64,000 nt of DNA from Ochrobactrum quorumnocens (GTDB lineage: Bacteria; Pseudomonadota; Alphaproteobacteria; Rhizobiales; Rhizobiaceae), in assembly GCF_002278035.1 (NCBI RefSeq), contig NZ_CP022603.1:496001-560000 (forward strand), in the 5' to 3' direction. Each line of letters starts with the position of its first letter. Position 1 is the stretch's first letter. Positions 16,457-26,389 of the stretch are shown here, in pieces. The position numbers and the translations under genes are program-made. The notes below the pieces were generated by a model. It saw nothing but the letters and a program-made list of their open reading frames with translations. It was not told where the DNA came from and made no database searches.

Positions 16457-17053
16457 TTAATAGGTTTCTCCGCGCAGATGGCTCGCCAGAAAGCCGAGAT
16501 TATCTTGTCCCCAATAGGTCTCAGTATCGTAAATATAGGTCGGAAAACCAAACACACCCCTATCGACGGCACGTTCGCGATCCGATTTCCATTTGGCCTG
16601 AACGTCGTGATCATTCTCACGGCCCAACAGATACTGACCGTTAAAGCCAGCTTCATCGGCGACGGCACTGCGGACTTCCGGCTTGCCAATATCCTTAGCC
16701 TCAGACCAAAATGCATGTTGAAGTACACGTGTCAGCTGCAGCCAGTTTTGACCTTCAAGATAGGCAGCAATCACACTGAATGAAGCAGGTGTGGGGTCAC
16801 TCAGAGCCGGGCGGCTATCAATGAAAAGCGGTTTGCCGCGAAACTTGGCCCAACGCTTGAGATCTTGCGCGCCATAGGCGCGACGGGCTTCCGGACGATT
16901 GCGCGAAAAGATGCCGCCATTTTCCTCGATGACGGTCGCAAGATAAGGCTTGATTTCGATCACATGCCGCTCTGCCAGCTCCTCAAGCGTATCAAGCCCG
17001 AGATATGACCAGGGCGACCCGATGGAAAAGAAATAATCGATCGATTTTGGCAC
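16457..17053 (-). CDS. DsbA-fold protein, 2-hydroxychromene-2-carboxylate isomerase family
   Basis: A 198-residue thioredoxin-fold protein of the kappa-GST-like HCCA isomerase family. The N-terminal FSIGSPWSYLG provides the Ser that usually contacts glutathione in place of a CxxC pair, and the C-terminal RGVFGFPTYIYD plus WGQDNLGFL is the family's cis-Pro and closing motif. The known family reaction is a glutathione-dependent isomerisation in naphthalene breakdown, but many members act elsewhere. Here it follows the third binding-protein gene on the same strand (76 bases) and looks like the last gene of the 26389-to-16457 operon. A thiol- or glutathione-related step in that pathway is an inference. 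Confidence 0.87.
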   Translation of the reverse strand: MPKSIDYFFSIGSPWSYLGLDTLEELAERHVIEIKPYLATVIEENGGIFSRNRPEARRAYGAQDLKRWAKFRGKPLFIDSRPALSDPTPASFSVIAAYLEGQNWLQLTRVLQHAFWSEAKDIGKPEVRSAVADEAGFNGQYLLGRENDHDVQAKWKSDRERAVDRGVFGFPTYIYDTETYWGQDNLGFLASHLRGETY

Positions 17054-17072
17054 GTTTTATCCTTCTGTATGT

Positions 17073-17117
17073 GAGTGCATCCCGACAAGTGTGAACCTGT
17101 TTTCTGATAAGATGCGC
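17073..17117. repeat. Intergenic mosaic element, degenerate copy 3
   Basis: A diverged, reverse-orientation relative of the element at 20189: GAGTGCATCCCGA, AAGTGTGAACC, TGTTTTC and GATGCGC are recognisable, but the stem is interrupted. It lies between the DsbA-fold gene and the binding-protein gene. Confidence 0.55.
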
Positions 17118-17129
17118 GCAGGAACGTTA

Positions 17130-24003: not shown

Positions 24004-25355
24004 GCCGCACCCTTTCGGTGACTTCCGGCATCATTGTTTTCAACGGGCTTCGCATAACGGCTCTGCGGATGCTCCAACCCAAGATTTCCGCGCAGCGTAT
24101 CGTGTTTCAGGCTGTCTTCATGATATCCGCGCTCTTCCAGAATTGGCAGGACATGGGCAATAAAATCATCCAGCCCTTCGGCAATCACCGGGAAGCCTAG
24201 AATGAAACCGTCAGCGGCCTTCTGCTCTTTCCAGAGAATGACTTCGTCGGCAATTTTCTCTGCCGTGCCGATGAAGGAAGTGCGTGGTGTAGCCACATTC
24301 AGAGCCACTTCACGCAGACTGAGCTTATTTGCAGCCGCGTCGCGCTTGATGCGATCGGTTGTCGAACGAAAGCTGTTCTTGCCGACATCACCAAGGTCAG
24401 GGAAAGGCGCATCGAGATCATAGGCGGTGAAATCATGGTGATCGAAGAAACGTCCGAGATAGGAGAGCGCTTCGTGGATGCTTACGAGATTGCGGATCGC
24501 CTGGTATTTCTCTTCGGCTTCAGTTTCGGTTCGTCCAACAATGGGGCCGATGCCCGGATAAATGCCGACATCGTCCTGCGAACGCCCATGGGCAACCGCA
24601 CTTGCTTTGATCTGCGCATAAAATGTCTGGCTGTCCTTGATGGTGCCGGCATTGGTGAAGACGGCGTCGGCATGTTTGCCCGCAAGTCCTACACCCGCTT
24701 CGGAAGCACCGGCCTGAAAGATAACAGGCTGGCCCTGAGGCGAGCGCTGGATATTGAGCGGCCCTTCAACCGAGAAGAAGCGCCCCTTGTGGTCGAGCCG
24801 ATGGAAACCTTCGGGTTTGTAAAACTGTCCGCTTTCGCGATCGCGAACGAACGCATCTTCATCCCATGAATCCCAAAGACCTTTGGTCACTTCAAGATAT
24901 TCATCGGCGATTTCATAACGAAGCGCGTGCTCGGGATGTGGCTTGCCATAGTTACGGCCTGACCCTTCGAGCGGTGTTGTCACCACATTCCAGCCCGCAC
25001 GTCCGCCGGAGATGAGATCAAGCGATGCGAATTGCCGCGCGATCGTAAACGGGTCGCTATAGGACGTCGAAACCGTGCCTGCGAGACCAATGCGCTTTGT
25101 GTTTGCAGCGAGCGCTGAAAGGACCGTCAAAGGCTCAAAGCGATTGAGAAAATGCGGAATGGAAATCTCGTTGATATAAAGCCCGTCCGCGATGAAGGCG
25201 AAGCTGATGCCAGCCTCTTCGGACTTGCGTGCCGCATCAATGAAAAACTGAAGATTCACGCTGGCATCTGCCGGCCCGGATGGATGTTTCCAGGCATTCA
25301 TATGTCCGCCTGCACCCTGCAGCATCACACCGAATCTAATCTGCTTGGAACTCAT
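24000..25355 (-). CDS. NtaA/SnaA/DszA-family flavin-dependent monooxygenase
   Basis: A 451-residue LLM protein. It has NAWKHPSGPAD near residue 22, RIGLAGTVSTSYSDPFTIAR near residue 90, LISGGRAGWNVVTTPLEGS near 112, and KGRFFSVEGPLNIQRSPQGQ near 190. These place it with YtnJ/YxeK-like enzymes that open C-S or C-N bonds with reduced FMN and oxygen. It is the second gene of the minus-strand operon, 32 bases after the MsnO8-type gene and overlapping the M20 gene by four bases. The C-terminal tail past residue 430 is polar and not conserved in its relatives here. Confidence 0.93.
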   Translation of the reverse strand: MSSKQIRFGVMLQGAGGHMNAWKHPSGPADASVNLQFFIDAARKSEEAGISFAFIADGLYINEISIPHFLNRFEPLTVLSALAANTKRIGLAGTVSTSYSDPFTIARQFASLDLISGGRAGWNVVTTPLEGSGRNYGKPHPEHALRYEIADEYLEVTKGLWDSWDEDAFVRDRESGQFYKPEGFHRLDHKGRFFSVEGPLNIQRSPQGQPVIFQAGASEAGVGLAGKHADAVFTNAGTIKDSQTFYAQIKASAVAHGRSQDDVGIYPGIGPIVGRTETEAEEKYQAIRNLVSIHEALSYLGRFFDHHDFTAYDLDAPFPDLGDVGKNSFRSTTDRIKRDAAANKLSLREVALNVATPRTSFIGTAEKIADEVILWKEQKAADGFILGFPVIAEGLDDFIAHVLPILEERGYHEDSLKHDTLRGNLGLEHPQSRYAKPVENNDAGSHRKGAA

Positions 25356-25387
25356 TTGAGGTACTCCCTATAGCCAGTGGCTTTGGA

Positions 25388-26389
25388 TCAGGCGGCAATA
25401 GCCAGACGTTCGCCTGCGAGGCTTTCGATGGCAGCTATTCTTAGTTCATGAGAAACAGCGGGAAACTCGAGCACAAACTCAGCCACCCCATATTGCTCGT
25501 GCAGTTCATCGAGCTTCTGCTTCACTTGTTTTGCTGAACCCGCGAGCACATTTGGATGTTTTTCTTCAACCCGATAATCAGTCTCTCCAGCCTGCCGCGC
25601 AAACTCGGCGGCTGCCTCCTGTGTGCCAACCGAAACTGATTGTCCGGAGGTGAGATGAACCTTGAAGATTTTAATTTTCGAAACCGCAGCATCAACCGCG
25701 TCTTGGCTCTCGGCAACGACCGCACCAAGCGCCAGCACGGGCACTTTTCCAGTCACATTGTGATAGGCGTCGAACGTCTTCTGCAGATTGGCAGTATCGC
25801 CGTTCAAATGACCGGCATAAACAAAATCCCAGCCGGAATGCGCGGCGAGCAACGCGCTTTCAGGGCTTGCACCCAGCACGAATTTTTCCGCAGACACCTG
25901 TGGTTTGGGAGTTGCGACCAGTCCTTCAAACGGGCCGGAAGTGATCTTGTCACCGCCAAGAAATGCGCTGAGCTGTTCAAGCTTGCTGTTAAAATCGAGC
26001 CGTTTTTCGCTGCCTGTTTCCTGCTGCAAGGCCTTGGTTGACAATGGAAGTCCGCCTGGAGCCTTGCCGACACCGAGATCAACGCGTCCGCGCCCAAGGG
26101 CTGCTAGAAGGTTGAAGTTTTCGGCAACTTTGTAAGGGCTGTAATGCTGCAGCATCACGCCGCCGGAACCAATCCTGATCCGCTTTGTCGATGCCAGAAG
26201 ATAGGAAACAAGCACCTCAGGTGAAGGCCCGGCCAGCTCATCCGCGTGATGGTGCTCCGCAACCCAGAACCTCTTGTAACCCGACTGCTCCGCAGCCTGC
26301 GCATAAGAAACTGTATTTGCGAGCGCTATTTCCGCGCTCCCTGATTGCGCCACCGGGCTCTTGTCGAGAAGGCTTAACTGATAGGGCAT
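25388..26389 (-). CDS. MsnO8-type LLM class oxidoreductase
   Basis: A 333-residue paralogue of the protein at 1793-2794: MPYQLSLLDKSPV, RFWVAEHHHADELAG, IRIGSGGVMLQHYSPYKVAE and GRVDLGVGKAPGGLPLSTK are shared almost word for word. The ATG at 26389 is chosen because it matches the paralogue's start and follows a GGATG ribosome site; an in-frame ATG at 26419 is less likely. It heads the minus-strand operon running to 16457, so the promoter should lie in the 281 bases before it. Flavin-dependent oxygenation is expected; the substrate is unknown. Confidence 0.92.
   Translation of the reverse strand: MPYQLSLLDKSPVAQSGSAEIALANTVSYAQAAEQSGYKRFWVAEHHHADELAGPSPEVLVSYLLASTKRIRIGSGGVMLQHYSPYKVAENFNLLAALGRGRVDLGVGKAPGGLPLSTKALQQETGSEKRLDFNSKLEQLSAFLGGDKITSGPFEGLVATPKPQVSAEKFVLGASPESALLAAHSGWDFVYAGHLNGDTANLQKTFDAYHNVTGKVPVLALGAVVAESQDAVDAAVSKIKIFKVHLTSGQSVSVGTQEAAAEFARQAGETDYRVEEKHPNVLAGSAKQVKQKLDELHEQYGVAEFVLEFPAVSHELRIAAIESLAGERLAIAA

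What the first reader, a model, noticed from the sequence alone, without database searches (positions are those of the whole stretch)
16457..26389. Nine-gene operon that looks like an S-substituted-cysteine (organosulfur) salvage pathway
One minus-strand run encodes MsnO8-type LLM, NtaA/DszA-type LLM, M20 deacylase, GNAT acetyltransferase, fused amino-acid permease-ATPase, three binding proteins and a DsbA-fold protein. In B. subtilis the ytm-ytn and yxe operons combine the same classes: acetylate the imported S-alkylcysteine, cleave C-S with a flavin monooxygenase, deacetylate. The four-base overlap of the monooxygenase and M20 genes shows their products are made together. The composition is seen; the pathway is inference from known families.
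Basis: partly seen in the sequence, partly recalled or inferred. Interest (0 to 1): 0.8.

Follow-up and report, generated by a model that had tools for sequence, protein, structure and literature searches.

The report
Predicted cysteine-rescue operon with glutathione partner
Nine neighbouring bacterial genes, at least six of which recur in the same order in many soil and plant bacteria, likely let the cell take up cysteine that carries an unwanted side group and are predicted to strip that group off so that its sulfur can be used again.

Summary
The nine genes are there, at the stated coordinates. Salvage of S-substituted cysteine is supported and can be sharpened. The second oxygenase groups with B. 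subtilis YtnJ (CmoJ), the first with Firmicute YtmO (CmoO): the sulfoxide route, rather than the one-oxygenase yxe route for S-(2-succino)cysteine. CmoO-CmoJ-M20-GNAT-ABC-SBP is contiguous in 79 of 80 related loci; CmoO and CmoJ occur in the same 7 of 151 family genomes. A 17-bp palindrome precedes 57 of 80 of these clusters; in three of seven rhizobial genomes searched it also adjoins taurine-dioxygenase-like, sulfonate-monooxygenase-like or MsuE genes, a sulfur-starvation signature. The window carries it once, at a neighbouring second cluster with a CmoO-like gene, not at this operon. The 'DsbA-fold' gene has no cysteine and is GST-kappa-like; it may replace the glutaredoxin of the Bacillus operon. 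Substrate and reactions are inferred. Against: the GNAT shows no detectable similarity to Listeria YtmI, the best-scoring solved relative of CmoJ is named a nitrilotriacetate monooxygenase, and YxeK was not compared. Verdict: a real, well-supported new variant of a known pathway.

The parts
25388..26389 (-). CmoO/YtmO-like MsnO8-family flavin monooxygenase (predicted S-oxygenase)
   Evidence: TIGR03558 305 bits; 40% to Listeria YtmO, 46% to the Paenibacillus copy; in the YtmO group of the tree, 92/94
24000..25355 (-). CmoJ/YtnJ-like NtaA/DszA-family flavin monooxygenase (predicted C-S cleaving enzyme)
   Evidence: YtnJ structure 6ask E 1.8e-158 (3sdo, named nitrilotriacetate monooxygenase, scores higher, E 1.5e-185); tree group with B. 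subtilis YtnJ 95/97
22813..24003 (-). M20 amidohydrolase, predicted N-acetylcysteine deacetylase
   Evidence: best solved structure YxeP/ScmP, 1ysj, E 1.4e-73; overlaps the CmoJ gene by 4 bases
22236..22778 (-). GNAT acetyltransferase, predicted N-acetylation of the imported amino acid
   Evidence: PF00583 53 bits; 47% to the Pantoea cluster GNAT, no tblastn hit to Listeria YtmI
20253..22061 (-). Fused amino-acid ABC permease-ATPase
   Evidence: PF00528 96-295 and PF00005 369-527 in one frame; ATPase half best to the L-cystine TcyN model, 310 bits, cut-off 406
19147..20088 (-). Solute-binding protein 1 (SBP_bac_3)
   Evidence: PF00497; best NCBIfam model is a cystine SBP, 91 bits, cut-off 312
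18127..19071 (-). Solute-binding protein 2
   Evidence: PF00497
17130..18056 (-). Solute-binding protein 3
   Evidence: PF00497; start chosen by comparison, the mechanical ORF is longer
16457..17053 (-). GST-kappa/HCCA-isomerase-like protein, cysteine-free; candidate glutathione-dependent step
   Evidence: 0 Cys; Ser13 aligns with GSTK1 Ser16 and HCCA isomerase Ser11; model pLDDT 88, Foldseek top hits 3fz5, 1yzx, 2imd
26460..26570 (-). Conserved leader of the operon in the Brucella/Ochrobactrum group (probable promoter region)
   Evidence: block conserved in the 8 aligned sequences (window and seven loci) although the genes further upstream differ
1793..2794 (+). Second CmoO-like monooxygenase, in a neighbouring cluster with a peptide-type importer
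   Evidence: 44% to Listeria YtmO; TIGR03558 346 bits
1738..1762 (-). Sulfur-regulon-type palindrome (core TCTATGTTTTTTGTAGA) between the second cluster's GNAT and CmoO-like genes
   Evidence: 23.4 bits against 2.9 for the next best place in the window; 12 mononucleotide shuffles reach at most 9.5
949..1686 (-). GNAT acetyltransferase of the second cluster
   Evidence: PF00583 42 bits
2828..9727 (+). Peptide-type ABC importer of the second cluster (two binding proteins, two permeases, double ATPase)
9879..13803 (.). Three NtaA/DmoA-family monooxygenases of the second cluster (9879-11120 +, 11122-12504 +, 12478-13803 -)
   Evidence: TIGR03860 348, 585 and 549 bits

Best explanation
The operon likely encodes an S-alkylcysteine salvage pathway of the B. 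subtilis CmoO-CmoJ (ytm/ytn) type, predicted to import S-substituted cysteines and return cysteine for use as a sulfur source. Inferred steps: the binding proteins and the fused permease-ATPase take up the compound; the GNAT protein acetylates its amino group; the CmoO-like oxygenase adds oxygen to the sulfur; the CmoJ-like oxygenase cleaves the C-S bond of the sulfoxide, giving an aldehyde and N-acetylcysteine sulfenic acid; a thiol reduces the sulfenic acid, a step that the cysteine-free GST-kappa-like protein may carry out with glutathione; the M20 enzyme removes the acetyl group. Shown here: gene families, tree placement of the two oxygenases, conserved gene order, co-occurrence, and a sulfur-type operator at related clusters. 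Not shown: any substrate or reaction.
For: CmoJ: YtnJ structure E 1.8e-158; tree group of YtnJ with Paenibacillus, Pantoea and rhizobial copies 95/97, the genome's own paralogues outside. CmoO: 12-row group with Firmicute YtmO, 92/94 (not starred); joining it to generic MsnO8 rows instead is rejected, p-AU 0.014, a test named after a first tree had been seen. Contiguous order CmoO-CmoJ-M20-GNAT-ABC-SBP in 79 of 80 loci; the same functions in another order with an unfused transporter on two Pantoea agglomerans plasmids. CmoO (E<=1e-60) and CmoJ (E<=1e-150) in the identical 7 of 151 family genomes, each with an adjacent pair. The Listeria ytm operon pairs YtmO and YtnJ with a Tcy transporter, GNAT and FMN reductase. 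Palindrome at 57 of 80 clusters; 18 sites in 7 rhizobial genomes, 0 of the reversed control; of the 11 sites not at a CmoO gene, 7 adjoin TauD-like (2), SsuD-like (2), NtaA-type (1), MsuE (1) and KPN_01854-like SBP (1) genes, all seven in three of the genomes. Chemistry from PMC10863075 (whole text); N-acetylcysteine deacetylase role of M20 relatives from PMC12757645 (abstract and passages). That CmoO is YtmO and CmoJ is YtnJ is recalled.
Against: The best-scoring solved relative of the CmoJ-like protein is 3sdo, named nitrilotriacetate monooxygenase (620 bits against 531-534 for YtnJ; whether that name was ever tested I did not check). The GNAT protein gave no tblastn hit to Listeria YtmI at E<=1e-4, and the Listeria operon itself has no M20 gene. 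No glutaredoxin (YtnI) and no flavin reductase in the operon; the nearest flavin reductase seen is 19 kb away at G000:C2:492889-493437 (genes right of window 32 kb were not scanned). The palindrome is absent upstream of this operon (0 exact sites in the genome; four one-mismatch sites against 25 for the reversed control), and 3 of the 7 rhizobial genomes have it only at CmoO. GST-kappa-like relatives occur without CmoJ in 4 of 6 family genomes that have one, and 5 of 7 family genomes with CmoJ lack one. The second MsnO8 of the window is slightly closer to Listeria YtmO than the operon's own (44 against 40%). YxeK was not obtained for comparison. The 80 loci are the best 80 of 364 and mostly Rhizobiaceae.
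Confidence: 0.72

Rival explanations
1. The operon is a yxe/scm-type pathway for S-(2-succino)cysteine: the CmoJ-like enzyme is functionally a YxeK, and the MsnO8 protein has a side role.
For: LLM, GNAT, ABC and M20 are the shared yxe components (PMC9706529, section read); M20 is closest among solved structures to YxeP.
Against: An MsnO8 oxygenase is adjacent in 80 of 80 loci and co-occurs in 7 of 7 family genomes, which the one-oxygenase route would not need; none of the nine genes matches a lyase (2SL) or an MmgE/PrpD domain (that YxeQ is of the MmgE/PrpD kind is recalled); CmoJ groups with YtnJ.
Confidence: 0.15
2. The oxygenases act on another N- or S-substituted compound (nitrilotriacetate-like chelators, mercapturates taken up already acetylated, sulfonates), and acetylation is not the first step.
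For: The NtaA/DmoA family covers many substrates and the best solved relative is named nitrilotriacetate monooxygenase; 11 of 11 operon-type binding proteins aligned lack the acidic residue found in AncQR at the place that binds the alpha-amino group (that role is recalled).
Against: The conserved GNAT-M20 pair fits acetylation and deacetylation; Listeria TcyK lacks the acidic residue too, so its absence does not show an N-blocked ligand.
Confidence: 0.13
3. Separate question, compatible with the best explanation: the GST-kappa-like gene is a passenger of the operon with an unrelated role (for instance conjugation of electrophiles).
For: Absent from 35 of 80 loci (one of them, L015, is cut off), present without CmoJ in 4 of 6 family genomes that have it, and missing in 5 of 7 with CmoJ.
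Against: In the window's genus all 14 genomes that have it are among the 15 with CmoJ, 13 of them on the same contig within about 7 kb.
Confidence: 0.45

Closest known systems
B. subtilis ytm/ytn (CmoO-CmoJ) S-alkylcysteine salvage operon
   Same: CmoO- and CmoJ-type oxygenases, cystine-type ABC importer, a GNAT, M20 deacetylase class
   Different: fused permease-ATPase, three binding proteins, a GNAT without detectable similarity to Listeria YtmI, no glutaredoxin YtnI, a GST-kappa-like protein at the 3' end; in most rhizobial loci a third LLM
B. subtilis yxe/scm S-(2-succino)cysteine operon
   Same: LLM, GNAT, ABC importer and M20 (YxeP) in one operon
   Different: one oxygenase there, two here; no YxeQ-like or 2SL-like gene found
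Human GSTK1 / 2-hydroxychromene-2-carboxylate isomerase family
   Same: fold by sequence and model, serine in the SPxS motif, no CXXC
   Different: 198-aa family tied to CmoJ in the window's genus; activity unknown
KPN_01854/KPN_01858-type proteins (TIGR04028, TIGR04027)
   Same: a binding protein and an LLM of the neighbouring cluster, and the rhizobial third LLM, match these models
   Different: all matches are far below the models' cut-offs; the models carry no function

Membership tests
CmoO-CmoJ S-alkylcysteine salvage (ytm/ytn type) | CmoJ (YtnJ) orthologue | tested here: met
   tree group 95/97. 3sdo, named nitrilotriacetate monooxygenase, scores higher than YtnJ and was not in the tree
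CmoO-CmoJ S-alkylcysteine salvage (ytm/ytn type) | CmoO (YtmO) orthologue beside it | tested here: met
   compared with Listeria, Niallia and Paenibacillus YtmO, not with the B. subtilis protein; group support 92/94, not starred
CmoO-CmoJ S-alkylcysteine salvage (ytm/ytn type) | N-acetyltransferase orthologous to YtmI | tested here: inconclusive
   GNAT present but no tblastn hit to Listeria YtmI
CmoO-CmoJ S-alkylcysteine salvage (ytm/ytn type) | M20 N-acetylcysteine deacetylase | tested here: met
   family level only: YxeP/ScmP is the best solved relative
CmoO-CmoJ S-alkylcysteine salvage (ytm/ytn type) | Tcy-type amino-acid importer | tested here: met
   ATPase 51% to Listeria TcyN
CmoO-CmoJ S-alkylcysteine salvage (ytm/ytn type) | glutaredoxin-like YtnI in the operon | tested here: not met
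   none of the nine genes; a GST-kappa-like gene is present instead. I do not treat YtnI as essential to the pathway
CmoO-CmoJ S-alkylcysteine salvage (ytm/ytn type) | activity on N-acetyl-S-alkylcysteine (sulfoxide) | not testable with these tools
   needs enzyme assay
CmoO-CmoJ S-alkylcysteine salvage (ytm/ytn type) | induction by sulfur limitation | tested here: inconclusive
   sulfur-type operator at 57 of 80 relatives and at the window's second cluster, not at this operon
yxe/scm 2SC pathway | YxeK monooxygenase | not tested
   no YxeK sequence was obtained
yxe/scm 2SC pathway | YxeQ or 2SL lyase in the locus | tested here: not met
   no such Pfam match among the nine genes; the family of YxeQ is recalled
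DsbA disulfide oxidoreductase (gene 16457-17053) | CXXC active site | tested here: not met
   no cysteine
GST kappa / HCCA isomerase (gene 16457-17053) | fold and active-site serine | tested here: met
   the catalytic role of that serine is recalled
GST kappa / HCCA isomerase (gene 16457-17053) | glutathione binding | not testable with these tools
   needs binding assay

The most novel reading that the evidence does not exclude
Proteobacteria run the CmoO-CmoJ pathway with glutathione: the cysteine-free GST-kappa-like protein is the missing reductase that turns N-acetylcysteine sulfenic acid (via its glutathione mixed disulfide) into N-acetylcysteine, replacing the Firmicute glutaredoxin YtnI, and the pathway sits in a rhizobial sulfur-starvation regulon defined by the palindrome TCTA-N5-TTTATAGA.
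Probability: 0.28. Interest if true: 0.68.

Novelty: new variant of a known kind. Interest (0 to 1): 0.55.

Why it matters
If right, the sulfoxide route for rescuing S-alkylated cysteine, worked out in B. subtilis, also works in rhizobia, Pantoea and other plant-associated Proteobacteria, with a different thiol system. It would name candidate genes for using the S-alkylcysteines of plants and the cysteine left after glutathione detoxification, and it gives a testable operator for a sulfur-starvation regulon in Rhizobium.

Tried and rejected
Rejected: disulfide-exchange role of the DSBA-family gene (no cysteine). Rejected as part of the operon: the racemase-like and DAO genes at 26671-28778 (beside CmoO in 2 of 80 loci, L009 and L011) and the SDR/LysR pair at 14674-16400 (next to the operon in L009, L011 and L012; an SDR match also follows it in L016). 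Tried for a regulator site shared by this operon and rhizobial leaders: 2 of 8 leaders compared with 200 shuffles each came near (L040, L068), but no palindrome is there; Rfam found nothing at 14000-28000. An N-blocked ligand for the binding proteins was considered from a missing acidic residue and not adopted, since TcyK lacks it too. The first CmoO tree was replaced, which leaves out the long-branch LLM3 rows. In the CmoJ tree the row par_1438k (315 aa) is a wrong reading frame and is not interpreted. Paper searches that showed no paper on a proteobacterial CmoO-CmoJ cluster, listings only, in an open-access library: 15 of 290 hits listed; 10 of 11 listed. Two B. subtilis papers on this pathway (Chan 2014, Hazra 2022) were not seen.
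Full report
The observation. The window is part of contig C2 of a 5.6-Mb genome; the named relatives with CmoJ at 97-98% identity include Brucella grignonensis, B. pituitosa and B. pseudogrignonensis, the former Ochrobactrum group. The nine minus-strand genes are as described: frames, families, spacing. The transporter is one 602-aa frame with permease and ATPase. One transcript is inferred from spacing; no terminator-like match lay in a gap between genes.

The two oxygenases. 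For the gene at 24000-25355 the best solved relative is 3sdo, named nitrilotriacetate monooxygenase (620 bits); the YtnJ entries follow (531-534 bits, E down to 1.8e-159), then 7e36 (320), DszA (255), riboflavin lyase (220), EDTA monooxygenase (210), DmoA (203) and LadA (195). In a tree of 18 rows it groups with YtnJ and the Listeria, Niallia, Paenibacillus, Pantoea and rhizobial copies at 95/97, with the genome's own paralogues outside (one paralogue row there is a wrong frame and is ignored; 3sdo was not included). The gene at 25388-26389 is of the MsnO8 family. To test it against YtmO/CmoO I used the ytm operon of Listeria (L101), where YtmO, a glutaredoxin and YtnJ follow the Tcy transporter, plus Niallia and Paenibacillus loci. 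In 16 rows the window CmoO sits in a 12-row group with Firmicute YtmO (92/94, not starred); holding it with the generic MsnO8 rows is rejected (p-AU 0.014), a test chosen after the first tree had been seen. That YtmO and YtnJ are the published CmoO and CmoJ is recalled; the papers read call the clusters ytn and the enzymes CmoO and CmoJ.

Conservation. In 80 loci (the best 80 of 364, mostly Rhizobiaceae) CmoO-CmoJ-M20-GNAT-ABC-SBP is contiguous in 79; L015 is cut off by its contig. A third LLM related to the KPN_01858 model (below its cut-off) is in 69 of 80, the GST-kappa-like gene in 45 of 80 (both 37, neither 3). Two Pantoea agglomerans plasmids carry the same functions in another order, with separate permease and ATPase. 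In 151 family genomes CmoJ at E<=1e-150 and CmoO at E<=1e-60 occur in the same seven genomes, each with an adjacent pair; one, G211, has a second pair 7.6 kb apart (chance 3e-12 if genomes were independent, which they are not). The operon is patchy: CmoJ in 15 of 35 genus, 7 of 151 family and 2 of 150 order genomes, own genome included.

The sulfur signature. Several rhizobial leaders showed a common palindrome. TCTA-N(7-11)-TATAGA, on the strand read, lies within 200 bases upstream of CmoO in 57 of 80 loci and once in the remaining 1.64 Mb (the pattern was defined after seeing leaders). In seven whole rhizobial genomes TCTA-N5-TTTATAGA occurs 18 times, its reversed control 0 times. Seven sites are the CmoO leaders. 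Of the other 11, seven adjoin a TauD-like dioxygenase (2), an SsuD-like LLM (2), an NtaA-type LLM, an MsuE FMN reductase (252 bits, cut-off 212) and a KPN_01854-like binding protein; these lie in three genomes (G330, G333, G334). The TauD-like, SsuD-like and binding-protein matches are below the models' cut-offs, the NtaA and MsuE matches above. Four were unclear: L133, L135 (a gene near the end of a CmoO cluster), L142, L145 (RbsB-like binding protein). Three genomes (G331, G335, G336) have only the CmoO site. A matrix from 28 distinct rhizobial sites finds one outstanding site in the window, 1738-1762, 23.4 bits against 2.9 for the next and 9.5 for the best of 12 shuffles; the same score is reached at L014:12513, near the matching cluster of another Ochrobactrum. 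The window site lies between divergent GNAT and CmoO-like genes of the neighbouring cluster, not at this operon. The whole genome has no exact site and four with one mismatch, fewer than the reversed control's 25.

The neighbouring cluster. From the left flank (L104) to 13.8 kb lie a flavin reductase, seven LLM genes (one of them CmoO-like), a GNAT and a peptide-type ABC importer. With the operon this makes nine LLM genes in 28.8 kb (G000:C2:493590-522389). Another genome (G211, L126) has a matching peptide-importer cluster with a CmoJ relative (55% to the window's) in it. So the genome has two adjacent modules that differ in importer.

The GST-kappa-like gene. It has no cysteine; nor has any of the 45 copies examined (two of these, L024 and L081, are short or oddly started). 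Its serine 13 aligns with Ser16 of GSTK1 and Ser11 of HCCA isomerase (their catalytic role is recalled), and S13-P14-W15 is invariant in the 30 of 45 copies aligned. A model (pLDDT 88) has HCCA-isomerase-type and GSTK1 structures as its nine best PDB matches, disulfide oxidoreductases after them. In the genus, 14 of 14 genomes with it also have CmoJ, 13 on the same contig within about 7 kb; the one CmoJ genome without it is 72% complete. In the wider family 4 of 6 with it lack CmoJ, and 5 of 7 with CmoJ lack it. Its role as reductase of the sulfenic acid is a hypothesis.

Judgement. The S-alkylcysteine route is favoured over the 2SC route because a second oxygenase is adjacent in 80 of 80 loci and no YxeQ-like or 2SL-like gene was found (locus definition from PMC9706529: abstract, one section and passages). 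YxeK could not be compared. Chemistry is from PMC10863075 (whole text); deacetylase roles from PMC12757645 (abstract and passages); Listeria ytm naming from PMC9239247 (passages).

Noticed in passing
window 1-13803 and L104:10890-16795: A second organosulfur-type cluster beside the operon: flavin reductase, seven LLM genes (one CmoO-like), GNAT and a peptide-type ABC importer; nine LLM genes in 28.8 kb together with the operon.
   Followed up: partly
57 of loci L018-L088, 41-69 bases upstream of CmoO; window 1738-1762: A palindrome TCTA-N5-TTTATAGA that in three rhizobial genomes also marks TauD-like, SsuD-like or MsuE genes: candidate operator of a sulfur-starvation regulon; its regulator is unknown.
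   Followed up: partly
L104:11516 (G000:C2 about 493515): A weaker match to the same palindrome (15.3 bits) beside the flavin reductase of the second cluster.
   Followed up: no
window 26460-26570 and L009-L014, L016: A conserved leader upstream of CmoO in the Brucella/Ochrobactrum group, different from the rhizobial one.
   Followed up: partly
window 17130-20088: The three binding proteins keep the arginine in the carboxylate-binding position but lack the acidic residue that AncQR has in the alpha-amino position (roles recalled); Listeria TcyK lacks it too.
   Followed up: partly
window 26671-32324: A separate amino-acid ABC locus with a DAO-family oxidase, an Asp/Glu-racemase match and a similar-looking ORF, and a possible Lrp-type regulator (not scanned), beside CmoO only in 2 of 80 relatives.
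   Followed up: no
G322:C42:74215-74784 (in L124) and G318:C5:8061-8630: A second, 54% identical GST-kappa-like gene elsewhere in two genomes of the genus.
   Followed up: no
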